A DNA stretch of 64,000 bases from Acetobacter aceti NBRC 14818 (lineage in GTDB: Bacteria > Pseudomonadota > Alphaproteobacteria > Acetobacterales > Acetobacteraceae), in NCBI RefSeq assembly GCF_000193495.2, contig NZ_AP023410.1:3185501-3249500 (forward strand). The letters run 5' to 3'. This document shows positions 39,306 through 54,015 of this stretch, one piece after another (position 1 is the first letter of the stretch; each line of letters starts with the position of its first letter). The notes beneath the pieces were generated by a model that ran no database searches, was not told where the DNA came from, and saw only the letters and a program-made list of their open reading frames with translations. The translations under genes were made by a program, and so were the position numbers.

Positions 39306-39322
39306 TGGTTCCCGAAGTAGGA
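39306..39322. repeat. attL direct repeat
   Basis: TGGTTCCCGAAGTAGGA, identical to the tRNA-Asn 3' end at 53940-53956. The next about 20 bases still resemble the tRNA imperfectly (GAAACCCACG against CGAACCTACG). Confidence 0.9.
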
Positions 39323-39470: not shown

Positions 39471-40679
39471 ATGAGTCGGCTCGCACCGAATCGTTTAACG
39501 GCCAGACAAGTAGCAACTCACAAAGATGGCGATTTGTGCGATGGTGGCAATCTCTGGCTGGTCGTTCGTGGAGCATCACGGATATGGACCTTCCGCTATA
39601 AAAGCCCTGTCACCGACAAACGCAGGGAGATGAGCCTCGGGTCTGGCTATGACATATCTCTGGCCGAGGCCCGTATGCTCGCGTCCGACGCCCGACGCCA
39701 GCTTAACCAGAAGGTTGATCCTTTGGAGCAACGTCGGAGCGAAGATGCTGTCAGAAGGCGGGAAGCAGGAATTCCGTTCCGTGATGTGGCAGAGCGATAC
39801 ATCTCCGACCAAGCGGCCGGCTGGCGCGATCCACTGCGCCCGAAGAACTGGCGCCGATCGTTGGAACTGCATGCCTATGATCTGATTGGCGACAAGCCTG
39901 TCGCCCAGATCGAGACCGACGATATCCTTTCCATTCTGCGCCCGATCTGGGTGGAGAAGACGGAAACGGCAGACAAGCTGCGTGGCCGGATGGAGCGCAT
40001 CCTCGACTACGCCCGGACCCATGGCTGGCGGGTAGGCGAGAACCCGGCGCGCTGGAAAGGCCACATTTCCGCGATTCTCCCCAAACCCTCAAATGTTTCC
40101 AAGGTGGAGCACCACAAGGCCATCGATCGCAAAGATATTGGGCGTGTGATGGCCGCTCTGGCCGAATCTCAGGGGATGGCCGCCAAGGCCGTACGCTTCA
40201 CCTGTCTAACCGCCGCCCGGTCTGGAGAAGTCCGCAACGCAACATGGTCAGAGATCGACCTAAAGACTCGCGTGTGGACGATCCCGGCGCATCGGATGAA
40301 GATGGGGAGGGAGCACCGTGTTCCGCTGTCTGACGGCGCTGTGGCCGTCCTGCAGGAAGTCATGCTTCTGCGGGATGAGCGCGCCGGTGATCTGGTGTTT
40401 CCCGGTCAGAAACGGGGCAAGCCGCTGTCAGATGTGGCTCTGTCCAAGGCGCTTCACATTGCAGCAGGCACGAAAGACGTCACCGTGCATGGCCTGCGGT
40501 CCACGTTCCGCGACTGGGCGGCTGAAGACACCGATTATCCCAGCGAAGTGGCTGAGATGGCGCTGGCGCACGCCATCAGCAACAAGGTCGAGGCCGCTTA
40601 TCGACGAGGGGATCTGTTCGATAAGCGGCGGGAGATGATGGTTAATTGGTATGTAGCTACTAATGAATCTGCTGCCTAA
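39471..40679 (+). CDS. int: P4-type tyrosine integrase
   Basis: Site-specific recombinase that would insert the element at tRNA-Asn. The 402-residue protein has the DUF4102 arm-binding N-terminus (LTARQVATHKDGDLCDGGNLWL, about 9-30), a SAM-like core-binding domain (about 100-190) and the catalytic domain with Arg250 (TAARSGEVR), His340-x-x-Arg343 (VHGLRSTF), His367 (LAHAI) and nucleophile Tyr377 (AAYRRGDLF). All five catalytic residues are present, so it should be active. The start is ATG 39471, 149 bp inside attL, reading into the element. Confidence 0.95.
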   Translation: MSRLAPNRLTARQVATHKDGDLCDGGNLWLVVRGASRIWTFRYKSPVTDKRREMSLGSGYDISLAEARMLASDARRQLNQKVDPLEQRRSEDAVRRREAGIPFRDVAERYISDQAAGWRDPLRPKNWRRSLELHAYDLIGDKPVAQIETDDILSILRPIWVEKTETADKLRGRMERILDYARTHGWRVGENPARWKGHISAILPKPSNVSKVEHHKAIDRKDIGRVMAALAESQGMAAKAVRFTCLTAARSGEVRNATWSEIDLKTRVWTIPAHRMKMGREHRVPLSDGAVAVLQEVMLLRDERAGDLVFPGQKRGKPLSDVALSKALHIAAGTKDVTVHGLRSTFRDWAAEDTDYPSEVAEMALAHAISNKVEAAYRRGDLFDKRREMMVNWYVATNESAA

Positions 40680-42152: not shown

Positions 42153-43115
42153 TCAGCCGGGAATAAAGACGTTCGCAAAGTGGTAAGCGAGGTATTCTTG
42201 CTGACGTTCCGTGAAGGGGGCGCCCCTTACTGGCATTTCGTCGACGCAGCCAAGAAACATCAGTTGTGTGCAATCAACGACCGGAGAGACTTTGACACGG
42301 CCGTTGTTCGTAAAGGTGATGTAGCCGTGATCAAAAAGATGATCGATGTTAGGACTGAGAAGAAAGCCGTTGTGCCCGTCTAGGCGTTCATTTCCTGTTT
42401 CGCAGGCCCGCCATGGCTTGATATGGCTCGCTTTAAGATGACGTTTGTCTGTGACCTGGCTCACTCGACAGCCTGTCTCGATCTCTTCAACGTTCAATCG
42501 AAAACGCCCTTGCCCACGTCGCGACTGTACCTGTGCCAAACGCTCTGTGTCATTGAGATTAACATCGTTGTTAATACTTTGAGCAATTGCATCGTCTAGC
42601 GTGCGTAAGGCGCCGTCATCGTCATCCATCCCTTGGGAGAGGGCTAGCACGTCTCGCGACCAGGCAGGCATCTGATAAGACAAAAGGCGCTGTCCGAGCT
42701 CCTCGGAGATACCAGCAAGATATGCACCTTGGTTACCGTTGCCGCTTTCCGGAGATATGGGTGAATATTTTTCCGGTAGCAGAGGCGCTAAGTCTCTAAT
42801 GTGACTTTTGGGGGAGAATGCATGCGGAAGAGCATGCCATTTGACCGGGATCATCCATCCGTCGTGATGCCATTGGGCGCCTGCCACACCAAATTCGCCA
42901 GGTTTGGGTGCTGTGACCGCTGGGTGTGTAGCGATGCCGATTTGTTGAATGAGACCTTTGGCGTAGGAAAACACAATATCGCCGGGAAGTACCTGTCGCA
43001 TGTTATCGTAAAAATGGTTGCGGTGGCCGTCTGCTCGCCGCTTGGGCGACCAAATATAGCCGCCTCCTATTTCCTGATCGTATGTCTGCTTATGATTGAC
43101 CCACCAGTATCTCAT
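42153..43115 (-). CDS. EVE-like/HNH endonuclease, putative modification-dependent nuclease
   Basis: A 320-residue two-domain protein. The N-terminus (MRYWWVNHKQTYDQEIGGG, then RNHFYDNMRQVLPGDIVFSY, residues 1-70) resembles EVE/PUA-like domains that read modified bases. The C-terminus (about 220-300) is an HNH_2-type nuclease: C-x-V, KASHIKPWRACETGNERLDG, NGFLLSPNIDHLFDHGYI, with the expected His and Asn residues. Such fusions are known as restriction enzymes that cut modified DNA. The ATG at 43113-43115 has an AAAGG site; the upstream open frame is not family-like. Inside a satellite element it is a plausible anti-phage cargo gene. Confidence 0.8.
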   Translation of the reverse strand: MRYWWVNHKQTYDQEIGGGYIWSPKRRADGHRNHFYDNMRQVLPGDIVFSYAKGLIQQIGIATHPAVTAPKPGEFGVAGAQWHHDGWMIPVKWHALPHAFSPKSHIRDLAPLLPEKYSPISPESGNGNQGAYLAGISEELGQRLLSYQMPAWSRDVLALSQGMDDDDGALRTLDDAIAQSINNDVNLNDTERLAQVQSRRGQGRFRLNVEEIETGCRVSQVTDKRHLKASHIKPWRACETGNERLDGHNGFLLSPNIDHLFDHGYITFTNNGRVKVSPVVDCTQLMFLGCVDEMPVRGAPFTERQQEYLAYHFANVFIPG

Positions 43116-43245
43116 AGAGCAGCCTTTTTGTTTTTCCTCAGCCTCAGCCGATGATGGTGGTGACAATGTGACATAAAGGGCAACCCAATCCCCGCTATGC
43201 AGAGATTCTTGACCTAGAGACTGAAAGCTAATGCGACGCAGATTT

Positions 43246-43879: not shown

Positions 43880-44308
43880 TCATGTTCCTTTTCCCTTTTT
43901 AGGCTGCGGCGCAGGAGCGGTTGGTGCTTTTAGACTGGCGCCGTCCCGGGCACTAAATCTCGCCTCCAGAATGCCAGATTCCTCGATTTTTTTCTGTTTT
44001 TCTAATTCACGCTGTCTCGTTGCTTGAGCGGTGGCCCCCAACAGGCGGACGCCAGGCGCATCACCATTTGTGAACTCCACCCCAGCGGCTTCTAGGGCAG
44101 CGCGGATAGCTGCGAGGTTATTGGGATGGGGAGTGCGGGCTCCCCGTTCAAAATCCTTGATCGTAGGTCGTGATACTCCGGCTGCTTCCGCCAGCCTGTC
44201 CTGATTCCATTCGAGCATTGCCCTTGCTCCTCGGCACTGAGCAGGACTCAAATCAGGTTCTGCCACAGGTTTTCCTTTTTGGTTGACTTCTGCGAAAATA
44301 TAATTCAT
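43880..44308 (-). CDS. XRE-family transcriptional regulator
   Basis: A 142-residue protein with a Cro/CI-type HTH (ARAMLEWNQDRLAEAAGVSR, then PTIKDFERGARTPHPNNL, about 27-75) and a basic, low-complexity C-terminal tail (APAPQPKKGKGT). I place the start at the ATG 44306-44308; the frame is open 26 codons further, but that stretch includes the putative operator. It is divergent from the rightward small genes. In a satellite this is the position of the master repressor that keeps the element silent. The C-terminal part has no protease or peptidase signature, so induction would have to differ from the LexA/CI type. Confidence 0.8.
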   Translation of the reverse strand: MNYIFAEVNQKGKPVAEPDLSPAQCRGARAMLEWNQDRLAEAAGVSRPTIKDFERGARTPHPNNLAAIRAALEAAGVEFTNGDAPGVRLLGATAQATRQRELEKQKKIEESGILEARFSARDGASLKAPTAPAPQPKKGKGT

Positions 44309-44318
44309 TTTGGCAAAG

Positions 44319-44336
44319 GTTGCTCTGAAAAGCAAC
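44319..44336. promoter_or_regulatory. Palindromic operator candidate at the XRE gene
   Basis: GTTGCT and AGCAAC are separated by 6 bp, 11 bp upstream of the XRE start codon and about 72 bp before the first rightward gene. Position and symmetry suit autoregulation and divergent control. Confidence 0.5.
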
Positions 44337-44407
44337 TGTTTTCGGCTGAAGTAGGGAGGTGAGAGTCCCGCCTTCAGCCTAACCACAACCGAAGCGGAGT
44401 TTCGGAC

Positions 44408-45388: not shown

Positions 45389-45713
45389 TCCAATAGTAAT
45401 TATGTCTTGCGACGCACTGAGACAGCACGAGACAAAATTGATGCCAACGCGGGTAATTTTTGGAAAAAGCTTTTGCATGCCGGTGCTTCTATCTGTATTT
45501 AGACACATCAGAGCATTTAGTATGAAATGCTTATCGGTATTCCAGCCTGCCCTTGGGCTGATGCTTGCAAGGCGAGTGGCGCTAACGCTTGGAATACTGG
45601 ATTGGCTGCCTGACAGATCCTTATGGATCTGGTCTGATGACCAAGGCGATGCCCGCGCAGATGCGTGGAGGCCGAGAAGAGAAATAAAACTCTTTTGGGG
45701 GCATCGGAAATGA
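45378..45713 (+). CDS. Hypothetical protein, 111 aa, atypical composition
   Basis: The ATG at 45378 has a strong AGGAGATCAAA ribosome binding site, but the protein looks unusual: many Cys, Met and Trp residues and no regular pattern. The first half is more AT-rich than the genes before it. It overlaps the AlpA-like gene by 4 bp (ATGA). It could be a real fast-evolving gene or a chance frame that keeps translation coupled to the next gene. Confidence 0.4.
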   Translation: MKPNPIVIMSCDALRQHETKLMPTRVIFGKSFCMPVLLSVFRHIRAFSMKCLSVFQPALGLMLARRVALTLGILDWLPDRSLWIWSDDQGDARADAWRPRREIKLFWGHRK

Positions 45714-45907
45714 ATCAAAACACACCAGTTAGTTTTGCCTTGCGTCTCAACGATGCGTGTAAATTTGCGGCAGTGAGTCGGGCGACAATGTATCGACTAA
45801 TCAAGAGTCAGAAAATCGAAGCTGTAAAAGTAGGTTCATCAACTTTGATTCTTCGTGAATCATTGGTGAACTGGCTGCAAAATCTTCCAAGACTCAATGC
45901 TTCTTAA
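45710..45907 (+). CDS. AlpA/excisionase-type HTH protein
   Basis: A 65-residue winged-helix DNA-binding protein: ACKFAAVSRATMYRLIKSQK, then IEAVKVGSSTLILRESLVNW, the pattern of AlpA/Xis HTH_17 proteins. In satellites and P4-like elements such proteins activate the integrase or act as recombination directionality factors. The ATG at 45710 overlaps the preceding stop. It sits directly before the replication genes, the usual place in PICI-like elements. Confidence 0.75.
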   Translation: MNQNTPVSFALRLNDACKFAAVSRATMYRLIKSQKIEAVKVGSSTLILRESLVNWLQNLPRLNAS

Positions 45908-46945: not shown

Positions 46946-49135
46946 GTGAGTTTATCTTCTGTAACGCCGTTTAAAGCCTGTGCAGCTGCTATCGCGCGCG
47001 CGGTGCTTGGTGAGCCGAACCGGCAGTATTCCACACGGTCACAAATGCGCTTTGGATCTCGCGGGAGCTTATCCGTAGAGATCGCTGGCGAGAAGGCAGG
47101 CACCTGGTTTGATCATGAGGCCAATATCGGTGGCGGGATGCTGGATCTGGTTCAGCGTGAACGCCATCTCGATAAAGCAGAGGCTCTTCAGTTCTGTCAG
47201 AACGTAGGTGTGAGTCTTAATAAGTCAGAGGCCCGTGCATCCATCTCGCGTCGTATCGTCGCTACTTACGACTACAGAGATGAGAAGGGCGCACTTCTCT
47301 ATCAGGTGCTCCGTTACGAGCCGAAGGATTTTCGTCAACGTCGCGCAGATGGTGCATGGAGTCTGGGAGATGTGCGGCGGGTTCTATACCGCTTGCCCGA
47401 GATTATTACGAAAAAGGATGAGCTTGTCTTCGTTGTCGAGGGCGAGAAAGATGTGGATGCTCTGTTTAACATCGGCCTGCTCGCGACCTGCAACGCCGGA
47501 GGAGCAGCCAAGTCTGGGCAAAAGAGTAAGTGGCGTAATGATTATACACACTCCTTGAAAGGCCGTGATGTTGTCGTTCTGCCTGACAATGACGAGGCAG
47601 GAGAAGCGCATGCTACTTCCATCGCCAAAGCTCTTTCGGAAGTATCTTCATCTGTAAAAATCGTGCGATTGCCGGGGCTGCCTGCAAAAGGGGACGTGTC
47701 AGACTGGTTGCGGGCCGGAGGCACCAAAGATGGGTTGCTTGATCTGGTCAGTAATACCCAGAAAGTTGCAATGGTAGCCGCTCACGAAGGTGAAGTTATC
47801 GAGGTGGGATCGGAAGGGTTGCTCACCGAAGATGCTGTTGCGACCGAATTCGCCAATCGTTATGCCGGACGTCTAAAGTTCTGTCATTCCGTTGGTAAAT
47901 GGTATGGTTGGGGCGGCACTCACTGGAAACAGGACAAGAAACATCGCGCCTATACCTTTGCACGTCGCATAGCTGGAGAGATCAGCGCAACAGCGGACCT
48001 CAAGGCCCGTGTCGCAGCAGGTAAGGCATCATTTTCCGGTGGGGTCGAGAAATTTGCACAGCGTGACGAGGTTTTTGCCGTCACGTCTGAAGAGTGGGAT
48101 CGCGACCCATTCCTGTTGGCAACACCCGGGGGAACGATCGAACTGCGGACTGGGAAGATGCGCCCTGCCACTCCCGCCGACATGATCACCAAACGCACTG
48201 CCATCGCACCCGCATGTGATGATTGCCCATTGTGGAAGAGGTTTCTGAGTGAAGCGACCAATGGCGATGCGGATCTGATCGAATTCCTTCAGCGTTGGTG
48301 CGGATATTGCCTGGCCGGCGATACCCGGGAGCATGCGCTCATTTTCTGTTACGGCCCCGGCGGGAACGGCAAATCCGTGTTTCTGAATACCGTGGCGAAA
48401 ATCATGGGTGATTACGCTGCCAATGCCGCGATGGATACATTCACCGCAGGTCATGGTGACAAGCATCCAACTGATCTGGCGATGTTGCGTGGAGCGCGAT
48501 TAGTGACAGCTTCAGAGACGGAAGAAGGGCGTGCCTGGGCAGAAGCGAGGATCAAGCAGATGACGGGCGGCGATCCGATCACGGCCCGCTTCATGCGGCA
48601 GGACTTTTTTACTTTTCTGCCCGAGTTCAAGCTGACCATTGTAGGCAATCACAAGCCTGTCCTGAAGAATGTGGATGAAGCCGCACGGCGCAGGTTCAAT
48701 ATCGTACCGTTCATTCACAAGCCAAAGAACCCTGATCGGGAGCTTGAGCAGAAGCTGATCACTGAGTGGCCTGCTATCCTCCAGTGGATGATCGACGGAT
48801 GCCTGAAATGGCAGGAAAATGGATTGCCCCGCCCGAAGGTCGTGCGTGAGGCAACAGACGAATATTTTGAGGCTCAGGACAGTTTCGGTCAGTGGCTCGC
48901 TGAACGGTGTGTTCTGGATCCTTGCCGCTCAAGCAAGCCTTCTGATCTTTTAAAGGATTTTCAGGAATGGTGCCACCAGAACGGTGAGCCTGAAGCCGAC
49001 AATAAGCGGCTTCGTGGGATGCTGGAGCGTACAGAGGGTTTGAAATACGTTCGTAAACGGATCGGCAACGGAAATCCGGTGCAGCTTGTGCAGGGTATTA
49101 CGTTGCTTCCCAAACGGCATGGGGATCAGGGGTGA
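46946..49135 (+). CDS. TOPRIM/D5 primase-helicase (P4 family)
   Basis: A 729-residue replication protein. The N-terminal zinc-finger-like part and TOPRIM domain come first (FVVEGEKDVDAL with Glu165, and VLPDNDEAG about 211-219), then a D5-N region (about 380-460), then an SF3-type helicase with Walker A GPGGNGKS (470-477) and the downstream VTASETEEGRAW and TIVGNHKPV motifs. It would synthesise primers and unwind DNA to replicate the element independently. The start is GTG 46946, with AAGGAG upstream. It is the main evidence that the element can replicate by itself. Confidence 0.92.
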   Translation: MSLSSVTPFKACAAAIARAVLGEPNRQYSTRSQMRFGSRGSLSVEIAGEKAGTWFDHEANIGGGMLDLVQRERHLDKAEALQFCQNVGVSLNKSEARASISRRIVATYDYRDEKGALLYQVLRYEPKDFRQRRADGAWSLGDVRRVLYRLPEIITKKDELVFVVEGEKDVDALFNIGLLATCNAGGAAKSGQKSKWRNDYTHSLKGRDVVVLPDNDEAGEAHATSIAKALSEVSSSVKIVRLPGLPAKGDVSDWLRAGGTKDGLLDLVSNTQKVAMVAAHEGEVIEVGSEGLLTEDAVATEFANRYAGRLKFCHSVGKWYGWGGTHWKQDKKHRAYTFARRIAGEISATADLKARVAAGKASFSGGVEKFAQRDEVFAVTSEEWDRDPFLLATPGGTIELRTGKMRPATPADMITKRTAIAPACDDCPLWKRFLSEATNGDADLIEFLQRWCGYCLAGDTREHALIFCYGPGGNGKSVFLNTVAKIMGDYAANAAMDTFTAGHGDKHPTDLAMLRGARLVTASETEEGRAWAEARIKQMTGGDPITARFMRQDFFTFLPEFKLTIVGNHKPVLKNVDEAARRRFNIVPFIHKPKNPDRELEQKLITEWPAILQWMIDGCLKWQENGLPRPKVVREATDEYFEAQDSFGQWLAERCVLDPCRSSKPSDLLKDFQEWCHQNGEPEADNKRLRGMLERTEGLKYVRKRIGNGNPVQLVQGITLLPKRHGDQG

Positions 49136-49468: not shown

Positions 49469-50005
49469 ACACGCGGATACGCGCGCGCGCCGAAAACCCC
49501 CCGAGATGGTCAGCCGTCCGAAATTCGGACGCTTGGCCGGGAATCCGCTGTCACGAGGCGCTTCTCACATCTGAGCAACGGGCCTGATAGCGATACCGGA
49601 AAGTCGGTAGCGAGGTGGCTTCCCCATCGTGGGGCAAACCAATGGCCAGCCGAATACTTGCCGGACATTCCAGCCAGATCAGGGGAAAACAGAGGTTCGG
49701 TTTCTATGTGATGCTCCGAACTAAGGTCTAAAATCAGCAGAAAACAGGGAAAGTGTAAGGCGGAAAACAGTCTAACCCCTCTTTGTGTCCCTCTTTCTGT
49801 CACGCCAAACCACCAATCGAACCTTTGAAGCCCTTTTGCGATCAAATCGCACCTGAAATACAGTTTCGTGTATTATTGCAATAATTTGTGATATTTATCC
49901 GAATCGTCTCGACGTATCTCTACGTATCAGCACGTGTCTGTGTAGTAATTTGGTCATTGTTGAAGAATATATCTTTTCGTATTCTTTCATTGTATTCTGT
50001 TTTTC
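49469..50005. promoter_or_regulatory. Non-coding region in the element with palindrome and phased repeats
   Basis: No convincing gene. The right half is AT-rich and contains a perfect 14-bp palindrome ATTATTGCAATAAT (49872-49885) and three 10-bp imperfect direct repeats sharing ACGT(A/G)TC (49911-49940). Both lie between the replication genes and the packaging block. This could be a replication origin, a repressor site or the late promoter; the sequence alone does not decide. Confidence 0.45.
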
Positions 50006-50212
50006 ATGAATGCGCCCCCAGACACTTCTGCCATGCTGAATACGGAGACTGCAGCGCGCCGGATTGGCGTCAGTGCGATGACCCTTCGTCGAATGCTGAA
50101 GGAGGGCAAGGCTCCGCCGTCAATCGTACCGGGAAGGCGTAAGCGCCTCTGGCCTGAAGCGGCGCTGATCGAGTGGGTGCGTTCCCGAACAACAGAGGAG
50201 CGTAGCCAGTGA
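50006..50212 (+). CDS. Small HTH DNA-binding protein
   Basis: A 68-residue protein with a MerR/AlpA-like HTH (ETAARRIGVSAMTLRRMLKE, then GKAPPSIVPGRRKRLWPEAA). No ribosome binding site is visible before ATG 50006; the upstream sequence is very AT-rich. It opens the late operon and overlaps the next gene by 4 bp, so it may be a late-gene activator or a second directionality factor. Confidence 0.7.
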   Translation: MNAPPDTSAMLNTETAARRIGVSAMTLRRMLKEGKAPPSIVPGRRKRLWPEAALIEWVRSRTTEERSQ

Positions 50213-50427
50213 GCACGCTTGAACAACTGGCCACACAGGCCGGACTGAAAGACACAGCCCTCCTGAAATGCGCCCGCACGGACCTGCCGCCGGTGGGACA
50301 GATTGCGGATCTGAAACAGCGTTATCCCGCCGCATTTCTGGCCCCTTTCGATGCTCGGACCGCCACCAAGGCCGAATACGAAGCCCGCCTGAGAGAGATG
50401 GGATATCGGCGTCGGAGTCCGATGTAA
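50209..50427 (+). CDS. Hypothetical element protein, 72 aa
   Basis: Starts at GTG 50209 overlapping the previous stop (GTGA), with AGAGGAG at good spacing. The 72-residue product is helical with a basic C-terminus (EARLREMGYRRRSPM) and no known domain. It ends in TAATG, overlapping the next gene by one base. Confidence 0.55.
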   Translation: MSTLEQLATQAGLKDTALLKCARTDLPPVGQIADLKQRYPAAFLAPFDARTATKAEYEARLREMGYRRRSPM

Positions 50428-50942
50428 TGCAGGCTGCAACTGAGGAAAAGCCAATCAGCATTCTGGTCAGGGAGATGCTCGAGGCCCATTCCGCTGCCCG
50501 TAGTCGTAGCGGCGTGCCGTGGCAGAAGCTGGACGGGATGGTCATGCAGGCCCGTCAAGCGGCCAGACGATCCAACGACACCGGAGCCAATCTGAACAGT
50601 CCTGAAGATCGTCGTCAGAAGGAGCGCATCCGCCGCGAGGTGGAGCGTGTGACGCGGGAGTGCATCCGCTGGCGGGACATGCCGCATCAGGACATTGGCC
50701 GGGAAGCCGCGGCGGCTCTTGCACCCGCTTCGCAGCCTGCCGCCACACCGCAACAGACAGCCCAGCGTCTGCTCAACGACTTCTCCCAGCGCGGTATCCG
50801 CCTTGAGGTGGCGTCCAAAAGCCGCCTGAGTGTGCGCCCGGCCCATCTGCTGACCGACAACGACAAGGCCAACCTGAAGGCCCATCAGGAGGCTTTGGCA
50901 GCGGCATGGCTGGAGCAGAATCAGGTGTGGATCGTCGAGTGA
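50427..50942 (+). CDS. Hypothetical protein with C-terminal TubC docking-like domain
   Basis: A 171-residue protein from ATG 50427. The N-terminal half is helical and basic (RRQKERIRREVERVTRECIR). The C-terminal 55 residues (AQRLLNDFSQRGIRLEVASK, then SRLSVRPAHLLTDNDKANLK) show the TubC docking-like pattern also seen in the 49148 protein. It precedes the putative small terminase and overlaps it by 4 bp (GTGA). A role in recruiting partners to the packaging or replication machinery is possible. Confidence 0.6.
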   Translation: MQAATEEKPISILVREMLEAHSAARSRSGVPWQKLDGMVMQARQAARRSNDTGANLNSPEDRRQKERIRREVERVTRECIRWRDMPHQDIGREAAAALAPASQPAATPQQTAQRLLNDFSQRGIRLEVASKSRLSVRPAHLLTDNDKANLKAHQEALAAAWLEQNQVWIVE

Positions 50943-51535
50943 AATCACCCGTCGAAAACGCCTCCGGAGCGTCGGACGAAATTACCGGCGAAATTGCCGT
51001 TTCAGCGACCGGCGCGACGAAAAGATCAGCCGCCAAAAGAGGGCGGCCGTGCAGCATCTGCACCCACCCTCTGGCAAGGGAGATCGACCGGGCGCTTATC
51101 AATCCGGATACTTCCTGTGCCTCGGTTGCGGAGGCGTTCCCCGGCGTCACGGCCCGCGCCCTTCAGAGACACTACACCGACCATCTGCTGCCCCGTCTCG
51201 AAAAGGCGACCGGACTGGCCTCTGAGGAGATCGAGCCGACCCTTGGCATTGTCGCCCAGCTTGAAGAACTGCGTGGTCGAGCCATGGCGCTCCTCGACCG
51301 GGCAGAGAAGGCGGGCAAGCTGAAGGATGCCATTGCCGCCATCCGTGAAGCCCGTGGCGTGCTGGACAGTCAGGCCCGCGTGACCGGCGAAGGCTCCCGT
51401 GCTGGTGTACAGATCAACATCGTCAATGCGCCCGGCTGGACGGTCGTGCAGGGGAGTATCCTCACGGCACTGATGCCTTTCCCCGATGCCCGTGCCGCCG
51501 TGGTGCAGGCGCTCGGACAGGTGATCGATGACTGA
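50939..51535 (+). CDS. Putative terminase small subunit
   Basis: A 198-residue protein I place at GTG 50939; an in-frame ATG at 50906 lies inside the preceding gene. It has a CSICTHPLAREIDRALI segment with a Cys pair, an HTH-like region (CASVAEAFPGVTARALQRHY) and a helical oligomerisation region (about 100-150). Position directly before the terminase ATPase (8-bp overlap) and the DNA-binding features suggest the small terminase that chooses the packaging site. In satellites this gene redirects packaging to the satellite genome. The assignment rests on context more than on sequence. Confidence 0.55.
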   Translation: MKSPVENASGASDEITGEIAVSATGATKRSAAKRGRPCSICTHPLAREIDRALINPDTSCASVAEAFPGVTARALQRHYTDHLLPRLEKATGLASEEIEPTLGIVAQLEELRGRAMALLDRAEKAGKLKDAIAAIREARGVLDSQARVTGEGSRAGVQINIVNAPGWTVVQGSILTALMPFPDARAAVVQALGQVIDD

Positions 51536-52301
51536 TCTGGTGCAGGACATGGCCCGCGATATCCGGCACGGTCTCGACCCTGTGCTGTTCGCCCGTGAAC
51601 GTCTGGGGTTTGATCCTGACCCATGGCAGGGCAGCGTTCTGAACTCGACCAGCAACCGGATCCTGCTCAACTGCACCCGGCAGTCGGGCAAAACCAGCAC
51701 AACTGCCGTGCTGGGTCTTCATACGGGCATGTACCAGCCTAATTCCCTGATCCTGCTTTTCTCCAAGGCCCAGCGTCAGAGTTCAGAGCTGCTTGCCAAG
51801 ATTTACGGCCACATCAACACGATGGAAGGACCGCCCCGGCTGGTGAAGGAAGCGGCGACTGAACTGAAGCTCGCCAATGGCTCCCGCATCGTCAGTCTGC
51901 CGGGTGACGGCGACAGCATCCGTGGTTATTCCGCCCCGAACCTGATCGTGGAAGATGAGGCCGCGTTCGTTCATGACAGCCTGTACGAAGCCTTCCTGCC
52001 GATGCTGGCGACCAGTAACGGGCGGCTGGTGCTGATGAGCACGCCCAACGGCAAGCGCGGCCATTTCTATCATACCTGGGCCGGTGGAGATCCGAAGTGG
52101 CAGCGGGAAAGCGTCACCGCCCTTCAGGTGCCACGAATCAGCGCTGACTACCTCGAAGACATGAAATCCGAATACGGGCCGCACAAGTTTGCTCAGGAGT
52201 TCATGTGCCGGTTTGTCGAGGCTGACGACCAGTTCTTTTCCGATGAGGCCATTGAGCGGGCGTTCTCCCGCGATGTGCCTCTGCTCGAACTCAATTTCTG
52301 A
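51528..52301 (+). CDS. Terminase large subunit ATPase domain (stand-alone)
   Basis: A 257-residue packaging motor ATPase. Walker A is CTRQSGKT (49-56) and Walker B LIVEDEA (139-145, with Asp143-Glu144); STPNGKRGHFYHTW is the coupling motif. It ends in FFSDEAIERAF, exactly where full-length large terminases continue into the nuclease domain. Here the frame stops and the nuclease-like domain is encoded separately 330 bp further on. The frame end is supported by a new ribosome binding site and gene immediately after. Confidence 0.85.
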   Translation: MTDLVQDMARDIRHGLDPVLFARERLGFDPDPWQGSVLNSTSNRILLNCTRQSGKTSTTAVLGLHTGMYQPNSLILLFSKAQRQSSELLAKIYGHINTMEGPPRLVKEAATELKLANGSRIVSLPGDGDSIRGYSAPNLIVEDEAAFVHDSLYEAFLPMLATSNGRLVLMSTPNGKRGHFYHTWAGGDPKWQRESVTALQVPRISADYLEDMKSEYGPHKFAQEFMCRFVEADDQFFSDEAIERAFSRDVPLLELNF

Positions 52302-52308
52302 GGTCTCA

Positions 52309-52629
52309 ATGACAGATATTTCCGACCAGATCGCGTCTGTTTCCGATGATCCCCCATTTCTGACCACGGCGGGCAATCTCATCAAACGCACAACATGGGC
52401 GCTGGTCAGGGATAGGGTGACAGTGAAGATGGTCAGGGCCAACGCCAGTAGCAGACCTCCTTTTCTGAGCATCACTGGCCTTGACGCGGTTCTTGTGGAG
52501 CCGGGCGAAAAGGTGCCTGAGACCGGATATGCAGTCGTCAATGTGACCGGGCATGAAGCGTTCACCCGTCCGGGTGTGCCGTGCGACCAGTGGGGCAACA
52601 TGCACCCCAGCCATGGCACACATTTCTGA
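52309..52629 (+). CDS. Hypothetical protein between the terminase parts
   Basis: A 106-residue protein from ATG 52309 with GAGG at close spacing. It is rich in beta-forming residues (WALVRDRVTVKMVRANASSR, then GLDAVLVEPGEKVPETGYAV) and has no recognised family. It overlaps the following nuclease gene by one base (TGATG). Its location splits what is normally a single large-terminase gene. Confidence 0.6.
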   Translation: MTDISDQIASVSDDPPFLTTAGNLIKRTTWALVRDRVTVKMVRANASSRPPFLSITGLDAVLVEPGEKVPETGYAVVNVTGHEAFTRPGVPCDQWGNMHPSHGTHF

Positions 52630-53351
52630 TGGGTGTGATCTCGCCAGCTCACACAGTCGTCGAAGATCGACGCATCATCACCGAGGGTCATCTGGATGGG
52701 TATTCCATCGGACTCGATCTCGGAAAGTCACAGGATTTTACAGCAATTTGCGTGGCGGAAGTCTTTCTCTGTGAGCGTCAGCGCTGGCAGAAGCTGCAAT
52801 TCGAACCGATGGCCCAGATCGTGCAGCGTCGGGTGACGTGGCGCTATCGCATCCGCAATGTGCATCGCTATCCACGCGGCACGTCCTATCCTGATATCGC
52901 CAGATCCGTACGCAGTGTCATGGGCCAGCTTCCGGCGGCTCCTGTTCCTCCCGCGCTTTTCGTGGATCGTACGGGTGTTGGCGCTCCGGTGGTCGATACC
53001 ATGCGCGAAATGGGGCTGGCGCTTGTCGGTGTGTCGATCACTGGTGGCGCGAAGGTGAACAAACCCAACTGCTGGGAGGCGAATGTGCCGAAGTCGGTGC
53101 TGGCGTCCGCGCTGGACATTGCCTTTGCCGAGGACCGGCTCGAACTCACATCTCAGGCCACCGCGTCCGAAGCTCTGAAATCAGAGTTGCAGGGGTTCAG
53201 GGTGAAGAAGACCACGCACGGGAATGAGACGATGGAAGCGTGGCGTGAAGGTATTCACGATGATCTGGTGCTGGCCACGGCGCTGGCGGTCTGGGGCGGC
53301 GAGCAGCGCATTCGTCCCCGTCCGCCCGTTCAGTGGGATTTGGGCCGATGA
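52629..53351 (+). CDS. Terminase-type RNase H-fold nuclease (stand-alone)
   Basis: A 240-residue protein with the acidic residues of a terminase nuclease domain: Asp30 and Asp36 (GLDLGKSQDFT), Asp113 (FVDRTGVG) and Asp211-Asp212 (GIHDDLVLATAL). The segments match the C-terminal half of large terminases, which cut concatemeric DNA during packaging. It would work with the ATPase encoded at 51528. It starts at ATG 52629, overlapping the previous stop. Confidence 0.75.
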   Translation: MGVISPAHTVVEDRRIITEGHLDGYSIGLDLGKSQDFTAICVAEVFLCERQRWQKLQFEPMAQIVQRRVTWRYRIRNVHRYPRGTSYPDIARSVRSVMGQLPAAPVPPALFVDRTGVGAPVVDTMREMGLALVGVSITGGAKVNKPNCWEANVPKSVLASALDIAFAEDRLELTSQATASEALKSELQGFRVKKTTHGNETMEAWREGIHDDLVLATALAVWGGEQRIRPRPPVQWDLGR

Positions 53352-53821
53352 CCATTGCCACGATCGACCCCGGCAACAGCGGCGCAATCGCCATTCTGTC
53401 CGATGCGGGCGACCTGATTGAAATCTTCGACATGCCGACCGTGGCCGTCACAGTGGCGAAGAAGCAGCGCAACATCGTGTCTGCTCCGCTACTGGCGACA
53501 ATGCTGAGGGCGCATGACCCGGCTGAGATATGGCTCGAGAAGGTATCGACCAGACCGGGCGAGGGTGCCGTCGGAGCGTTCGCGTTCGGTCGTGGTGTGG
53601 GTGTCATCGAGGGCGTGGCCGCTGCCCTTGGCAAGCCGCTTTCGACCGTGACGCCAGCCGTCTGGAAAAAGGCCACCGGATGTCCTGCCGACAAGGGCGG
53701 AGCGAGAGCCAGGGCAATGCAGCTTTTCCCGACAGCAGCCGACCAGTTCAAGCGCGTGAAAGACGATGGGCGAGCGGAGGCGGCGCTGATCGGAGCTTAC
53801 GCATGTCGGGCTCGGAAATAG
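53348..53821 (+). CDS. RuvC-like Holliday junction resolvase-fold protein
   Basis: A 157-residue protein with the RuvC/RNase H-type pattern: Asp7 in TIDPGNSGA, an acidic residue in IWLEKVST and a late Asp/Glu pair in DDGRAEAALIGAY. Phage-encoded members resolve branched DNA before packaging. It overlaps the preceding nuclease gene by 4 bp (ATGA) and is the last gene of the element, about 120 bp before attR. The function is assigned from the fold pattern. Confidence 0.75.
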   Translation: MTIATIDPGNSGAIAILSDAGDLIEIFDMPTVAVTVAKKQRNIVSAPLLATMLRAHDPAEIWLEKVSTRPGEGAVGAFAFGRGVGVIEGVAAALGKPLSTVTPAVWKKATGCPADKGGARARAMQLFPTAADQFKRVKDDGRAEAALIGAYACRARK

Positions 53822-53939
53822 TCTCACAACGCCTCATAACAGCGCTGTGAATGTCAGTCCGCAAGAGGGACAACATGCAGGGCGACCATTCAAGATAATG
53901 GCGTAACTGTTTGATTTTATATGGAAAAATAAGAACAAG

Positions 53940-53956
53940 TGGTTCCCGAAGTAGGA
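53940..53956. repeat. attR direct repeat
   Basis: TGGTTCCCGAAGTAGGA, the CCA and 3' acceptor/T-stem side of tRNA-Asn, identical to 39306-39322. Confidence 0.9.
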
Positions 53957-54015
53957 CTCGAACCTACGACCCAGCGATTAACAGTCGCTTGCTCTACCAA
54001 CTGAGCTATTCGGGA
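53940..54015 (-). tRNA. tRNA-Asn (anticodon GTT)
   Basis: The reverse complement is a 76-nt tRNA: acceptor TCCCGAA/TTCGGGA, anticodon arm AGCGA-CTGTTAA-TCGCT with anticodon GTT, T arm GGTTCGAGTCC, encoded CCA at 53940-53942. It is intact; the element is integrated at its 3' end. Confidence 0.97.

What the first reader, a model, noticed from the sequence alone, without database searches (positions are those of the whole stretch)
51528..53351. Large terminase split into separate ATPase and nuclease genes
The ATPase frame stops just where the nuclease domain should start; a 106-residue unknown protein and then a stand-alone RNase H-fold nuclease follow, each with its own start overlapping the previous stop. 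The arrangement looks stable, not a recent frameshift, and might let the satellite ATPase or nuclease work with helper-phage parts.
Basis: partly seen in the sequence, partly recalled or inferred. Interest (0 to 1): 0.6.

Follow-up and report, generated by a model that had tools for sequence, protein, structure and literature searches.

The report
Two-gene DNA packaging motor in satellite
A 14.7-kb virus-parasite-like element in an acetic-acid bacterium makes the motor and the DNA-cutting blade of its packaging machine as two separate proteins, an old and stable arrangement seen in dozens of related elements and phages, with an exchangeable gene wedged between them that resembles a structural-region gene of a resident phage type.

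Summary
TerS (50906-51535), a 257-aa ATPase (51528-52301), a 106-aa protein (52309-52629) and a 240-aa nuclease (52629-53351) are separate genes with intact catalytic motifs and purifying selection. They lie in a 14.65-kb tRNA-Asn-integrated island without recognisable capsid or portal genes. It is no recent break: no fused homologue exists among 12 Acetobacteraceae loci, and 56 fetched loci (35 viral contigs, Salinibacter and Streptomyces plasmids) carry this ATPase and nuclease as separate genes; at least five of those contigs also carry a portal gene. The split is therefore not a satellite invention. Splitting is already known: Arthrobacter cluster AY phages such as BillyTP have it, in another terminase family. 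The closest phage relatives (Meiothermus, Thermus) are fused. New here: the unrelated lineage, its presence in capsid-less islands, and the middle slot. That slot holds one of two unrelated genes or none. The window's version is homologous to a gene in the head/tail cluster of Acetobacteraceae contractile-tailed phages; all seven congeneric genomes with the island carry such a prophage (Fisher p 0.0004; a control portal family: one of seven). Best reading: a two-chain TerL packaging satellite DNA into helper heads. New variant of a known kind.

The parts
39306..39322 (.). attL-like 17-bp repeat TGGTTCCCGAAGTAGGA
   Evidence: exact match to the 3' end of tRNA-Asn at 53940-53956; read
39471..40679 (+). 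tyrosine integrase, 402 aa
   Evidence: Pfam Phage_integrase 1.3e-19, Arm-DNA-bind_3
45665..45907 (+). AlpA/excisionase-like HTH_17 protein
   Evidence: Pfam HTH_17 1.1e-10
46946..49135 (+). D5/P4-type primase-helicase, 729 aa
   Evidence: Pfam D5_N 3.9e-29, PHROG_6088 4e-149
50906..51535 (+). TerS-like protein, 209 aa
   Evidence: no family hit, but homologous by tblastn to the gene upstream of TerL in MMP17 (6e-16) and Riverbug (1.8e-13); the role is inferred from position
51528..52301 (+). stand-alone TerL ATPase, 257 aa (Walker A RQSGKT, Walker B LIVEDE, STPNG motif)
52309..52629 (+). middle gene, type A, 106 aa; homologous to a head/tail-cluster gene of Acetobacteraceae contractile-tailed phages (PHROG_32842 family)
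52629..53351 (+). stand-alone TerL RNase H-fold nuclease, 240 aa; DLGK, FVDRTG and HDD motifs intact
53342..53821 (+). RuvC-like Holliday junction resolvase
   Evidence: PHROG_1770 1.6e-32
53940..53956 (.). attR-like 17-bp repeat, inside the tRNA-Asn 3' end
53940..54015 (-). tRNA-Asn (gtt), integration target

Best explanation
The island is a capsid-less, phage-satellite-like element that carries its own complete terminase, with the large subunit made as two polypeptides. Shown: ATPase and nuclease are separate conserved genes under purifying selection; the split is old and shared by a wide lineage that includes portal-bearing contigs; the gap between them is a slot with exchangeable content. 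Inferred: TerS recognises island DNA made by the island's primase; the ATPase ring docks on the portal of a helper procapsid and pumps DNA; the separate nuclease binds the ATPase ring non-covalently and makes the initiating and terminating cuts; the RuvC-like protein removes branches. The helper is probably a contractile-tailed Acetobacteraceae phage. The middle protein is a phage-derived accessory that most likely fits the satellite motor or procapsid to that helper; it is not a required part of the split motor, since several homologous loci lack it.
For: Separate ATPase and nuclease in all Acetobacteraceae homologues, open ATPase frames of 258-304 codons. Both catalytic sets intact. dN/dS well below 1. 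Stop codon built into the next ribosome-binding site. 56 split loci, 35 of them in viral contigs, five with portal genes. Independent split in the isolated phage BillyTP shows that a two-gene TerL is compatible with plaque formation. Island anatomy: att repeats at tRNA ends here and in four relatives at different tRNAs. Middle gene homologous to a gene after MCP and connector in phiKX1 and prophages. Co-occurrence with that phage type 7/7 versus 1/7 for a control portal family with the same base rate of 18/49.
Against: No experiment shows packaging of any of these islands. In T4, separated ATPase and nuclease domains keep their activities but lose translocation, because the hinge is needed (PMC9958956), so work in trans needs an interface not shown here. 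Two portal Pfam families gave no match in the own genome; the putative helper portal was found only by its own relatives, and that resident prophage's TerL is frameshifted. Co-occurrence may reflect shared ancestry or general prophage load. The own-genome prophage lacks a middle-gene homologue.
Confidence: 0.7

Rival explanations
1. The split is a satellite-specific adaptation: the free ATPase pairs with the helper's nuclease, or the free nuclease with the helper's TerL, so that the satellite hijacks or poisons the helper motor.
For: The element has no recognisable portal or capsid of its own, so some part must meet helper proteins; the middle gene is phage-derived.
Against: The same split is present in contigs with their own portal and in isolated AY phages; both halves are kept together in every split locus listed.
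Confidence: 0.1
2. The genes no longer package DNA: the free nuclease and ATPase serve to damage or block competing phages (interference or defence).
For: The island carries cargo with HNH/restriction-like and control-protein-like hits; tandem extra nucleases occur in several relatives.
Against: No defence-system model matches the ATPase, middle protein or nuclease; TerS is retained and conserved beside them; relatives sit in the usual terminase-then-portal order.
Confidence: 0.13
3. A full TerL is still made from the split genes by frameshifting, intron or intein splicing.
For: Most overlapping relatives have the nuclease in the -1 frame relative to the ATPase.
Against: In the window a whole gene in another frame lies between them; no intron family and no intein family; slippery heptamers in 3 of 23 overlaps only; the -1 offset follows from ordinary ATGA overlaps.
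Confidence: 0.03
4. Sequencing error or recent pseudogenisation of a normal TerL.
For: One relative (L037/L047) does show a frameshift inside the nuclease, and a degraded copy exists in G032.
Against: Identical arrangement in a second copy in the same genome and in other species; purifying selection on both halves.
Confidence: 0.01

Closest known systems
Arthrobacter cluster AY phages, e.g. BillyTP PP978841 (PMC11920828; BlueShadow, PMC12820723)
   Same: ATPase and nuclease of TerL in two consecutive overlapping genes after TerS
   Different: Different TerL family (PHROG_19179/21277, PF20441 versus PHROG_7579/27743, Terminase_6); complete phage with portal and capsid; no middle gene
TerL of Meiothermus phages MMP7/MMP17 and Thermus phage Riverbug
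   Same: Closest isolated-phage relatives of the ATPase (41%), with a homologous TerS upstream and a homologous nuclease domain
   Different: One continuous protein of 415-417 aa in MMP17 and Riverbug; complete phages
Salinibacter ruber plasmids pSR11/pSR14/pSR31 and Streptomyces virginiae 16-kb plasmids
   Same: Split ATPase and nuclease in small elements, most with annotated primase genes
   Different: Circular plasmids, with ParA in the Salinibacter cases; no middle gene between the halves; their mobility was not studied here
Phage-inducible chromosomal islands and P4-like satellites (PMC6092414, listed; described in PMC10690885)
   Same: Chromosomal integration, integrase, AlpA-like regulator, primase, TerS, no capsid genes
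   Different: Carries its own TerL, in two genes; the PICIs and P4 described in the source read use or redirect the helper's terminase
Capsid-forming PICIs (PMC10690885)
   Same: Own TerS and TerL
   Different: No capsid, portal or connector genes found here
Komagataeibacter phages phiKX1/phiKX2
   Same: Encode the homologue of the middle gene
   Different: In phiKX1 it sits between coat-protein and tail-sheath genes; its terminase is one gene

Membership tests
Terminase large subunit (TerL), T4/G20c type | ATPase with Walker A, Walker B and coupling motif | tested here: met
Terminase large subunit (TerL), T4/G20c type | RNase H-fold nuclease with acidic triad | tested here: met
   sequence motifs conserved and matched to the G20c nuclease; fold not modelled
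Terminase large subunit (TerL), T4/G20c type | both domains in one polypeptide | tested here: not met
   separate genes
Split TerL as described in Arthrobacter AY phages | separate neighbouring genes for ATPase and nuclease | tested here: met
   met as an arrangement, here with one gene between
Split TerL as described in Arthrobacter AY phages | same protein family as AY TerL | tested here: not met
   no meaningful BLASTP match; different PHROG and Pfam families
Phage satellite (capsid-less chromosomal island) | integrase plus att repeats at a host gene | tested here: met
Phage satellite (capsid-less chromosomal island) | no structural genes of its own | tested here: met
   no portal, capsid or tail family hit among the island proteins scanned; very divergent ones cannot be excluded
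Phage satellite (capsid-less chromosomal island) | mobilisation by a helper phage | not testable with these tools
   only genomic co-occurrence with a contractile-tailed prophage type
Capsid-forming PICI | capsid, portal and connector genes | tested here: not met

The most novel reading that the evidence does not exclude
A class of capsid-less satellites across several phyla carries a complete but two-chain packaging terminase and, in acetic-acid bacteria, uses an interchangeable gene between the two chains, taken from phage structural-region genes, to fit its motor to different helper procapsids; the slot content would then set helper range.
Probability: 0.2. Interest if true: 0.8.

Novelty: new variant of a known kind. 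Interest (0 to 1): 0.5.

Why it matters
One review calls the C-terminal nuclease of TerL a universal feature across Caudovirales (PMC7824862), and T4 work says the hinge between the domains is essential for translocation (PMC9958956). A broad natural lineage in which the two are separate proteins makes it directly testable whether the motor needs the covalent link, and how a free nuclease is kept from cutting at the wrong time. The exchangeable middle gene gives a concrete handle on how a satellite with its own motor could be matched to a foreign procapsid.

Tried and rejected
Programmed frameshift, intron, intein: no consistent slippery site, no Rfam intron, no intein family. Single origin of the split: the ATPase tree is poorly resolved; one clade of split rows is not rejected (p-AU 0.10) but not shown, and long branches mislead it. 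Structure of the middle protein: type A best model pLDDT 76 but the other four 32-44, no PDB match; type B a beta-rich model of pLDDT 68 with only common-fold matches, Z under 7; no function drawn from either. Type B homologues: none in phages or viral contigs. Stand-alone nuclease of this lineage in isolated phages: only fused relatives found with three queries. Literature: no paper held contains 'split terminase'; AY phages were found through other wording. A guessed accession (MN813693) was an unrelated phage. AY phages BlueShadow and JellyBread are not in the collection.

Full report
WHAT IS THERE. The window is G000:C1:3185501-3249500 of a 3.69-Mb genome whose closest named relatives in the searched set are Acetobacter. 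The genes stand at the stated coordinates. The ATPase (51528-52301) matches Terminase_6N, PHROG_7579 and T4 gp17 only over the ATPase domain. The nuclease (52629-53351) matches Terminase_6C, PHROG_27743 and the G20c TerL nuclease. A 106-aa gene lies between (52309-52629). The ATPase start overlaps the TerS-like stop by 8 nt, the nuclease start overlaps the middle gene's stop by 1 nt, and the middle gene begins 7 nt after the ATPase stop. In 10 of 11 islands the ATPase ends TGA-GG, so that its stop supplies the GAGG of the next gene.

THE ELEMENT. A 17-bp repeat at 39306-39322 equals the 3' end of tRNA-Asn (53940-53956), which bounds a 14.65-kb island with integrase, ParA-like protein, HNH protein, regulator, HTH_17/AlpA-like proteins, D5 primase, TerS, split TerL and RuvC-like protein. 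No portal, capsid or tail family was hit among its proteins. Related islands sit at tRNA-Asn, -Tyr, -Ala and -Phe with 16-24-bp repeats. A second island in the same genome, beside tRNA-Ala, shares the packaging module at 99.2% over 4.3 kb while other parts are 86-90% alike.

THE SPLIT IS OLD AND STABLE. In all Acetobacteraceae homologues (51-98% identity; A. estunensis, A. sicerae, A. musti, A. sacchari, Novacetimonas, Gluconobacter, Tanticharoenia) the ATPase frame is 258-304 codons and the nuclease is separate. dN/dS is 0.03-0.14 for the ATPase and 0.05-0.14 for the nuclease. A profile scan of the fetched loci gives 56 loci with the two domains in different frames and 9 with both in one frame (the set is not an unbiased sample, because it was gathered with these two proteins, and a few rows are near duplicates). 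In most of the contigs without a middle gene, stop and start overlap as ATGA. Several contigs carry tandem nucleases, and four have 1.6-2.2 kb of other genes between the halves. At least five split contigs also carry a portal: L064 (SPP1-type) and the records of L068, L087, L095 and L097 (those of L087 and L095 are below the family cut-off), so the split belongs to phages as well as to islands. Small plasmids of Salinibacter ruber and Streptomyces virginiae have it too. The nearest isolated-phage relatives, MMP7/MMP17 and Riverbug, are fused, with a homologous TerS upstream. The tree cannot say whether the split arose once.

PRIOR KNOWLEDGE. [quoted passage not shown] Yet genome notes on Arthrobacter cluster AY phages report ATPase and nuclease domains in two consecutive genes (PMC11920828; PMC12820723), and the BillyTP record shows TerS, ATPase, nuclease, portal. 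Those proteins are of another TerL family, so the split arose independently there. A two-gene TerL is thus known and compatible with plaque formation. T4 data say the opposite for an artificial split: separated domains keep their activities but lose translocation (PMC9958956).

THE MIDDLE SLOT. Between the same two genes lie: type A (106 aa; window, second copy, G032, A. sicerae, A. sacchari contig 39), type B (138-139 aa, beta-rich; A. estunensis x2, A. musti, A. sacchari contig 22; shorter in Novacetimonas) or nothing (Tanticharoenia, Gluconobacter, a Rhodospirillales MAG). The window and A. estunensis LMG 1626 differ in type although their ATPases are 98% identical; DNA similarity stops at window position 52318 and resumes at 52657, that is, just inside the middle gene and just inside the nuclease gene. 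Type A is homologous (hhalign 97.7%, E 1.4e-12, 38% over 86 aa; PHROG_32842 family) to a gene in Acetobacteraceae prophages that follows portal, scaffold, major head protein and a conserved 134-aa protein and precedes the tail sheath, with the same place in the isolated Komagataeibacter phage phiKX1. Whether it is a virion protein is not shown; this is inferred from its place. Type B has no relative found outside the islands.

A CANDIDATE HELPER. A portal of that phage type is present in all 7 island-bearing genomes of the genus against 18 of 49 overall (one-sided Fisher 0.00037); the HK97-type portal PF04860, also in 18 of 49, is in 1 of the 7. The own genome has such a prophage near 1.54 Mb (major head protein 69% identical). 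This is association only: genomes are related, and that prophage's TerL is interrupted at a T10 run, so it may be defective.

HOW IT MOST LIKELY WORKS. Shown: two conserved chains, intact active sites, satellite-like island, phage-derived middle gene. Inferred: the two chains assemble without a covalent hinge at a helper portal; TerS chooses island DNA; the middle protein adapts motor or procapsid to the helper.

VERDICT. Observation real; arrangement stable; known as a kind from AY phages, new as a lineage, in capsid-less islands and with the exchangeable middle slot. Interest 0.5.

Noticed in passing
L138 (G000:C1:1530001-1550000) and L141 (G032:C1:3031001-3050000): The TerL of the resident contractile-tailed prophage is interrupted at a T10 run at the same place in two species, while relatives (L139, L140) have one open frame; slippage or decay is undecided.
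   Followed up: partly
L106, L107, L108 (Salinibacter ruber pSR11, pSR14, pSR31): 11-32-kb circular plasmids with ParA and split terminase, pSR11 and pSR14 with annotated primase; pSR11 and pSR14 also have a ~610-630-aa protein with partial tape-measure matches: possible plasmid-form satellites.
   Followed up: partly
L109 (Streptomyces virginiae 16.3-kb plasmid): Circular element with integrase, primase/polymerase, TerS-like protein, split ATPase and nuclease.
   Followed up: partly
L084, L093, L096, L102, L108: Two nuclease genes in tandem after one ATPase.
   Followed up: no
window 49592-53885 and L034 13786-18086: Two different islands in one genome share a 99.2% identical packaging module, suggesting recent recombination between islands.
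   Followed up: partly
window 42153-43166 and 43880-44386: HNH protein with restriction-enzyme-like matches and a control-protein-like HTH in the island's cargo region.
   Followed up: no
L091, L094, L095, L099: ATPase and nuclease genes separated by 1.6-2.2 kb holding several small proteins, some lipoprotein-like.
   Followed up: no
L055: Split terminase in a contig binned as a Methanoregulaceae archaeon (MAG), possibly an archaeal virus or a mis-binned contig.
   Followed up: no
L044 (G032:C1:3057001-3077000): Degraded copy of the ATPase with internal stops, about 1 kb from a tRNA-Pro.
   Followed up: no
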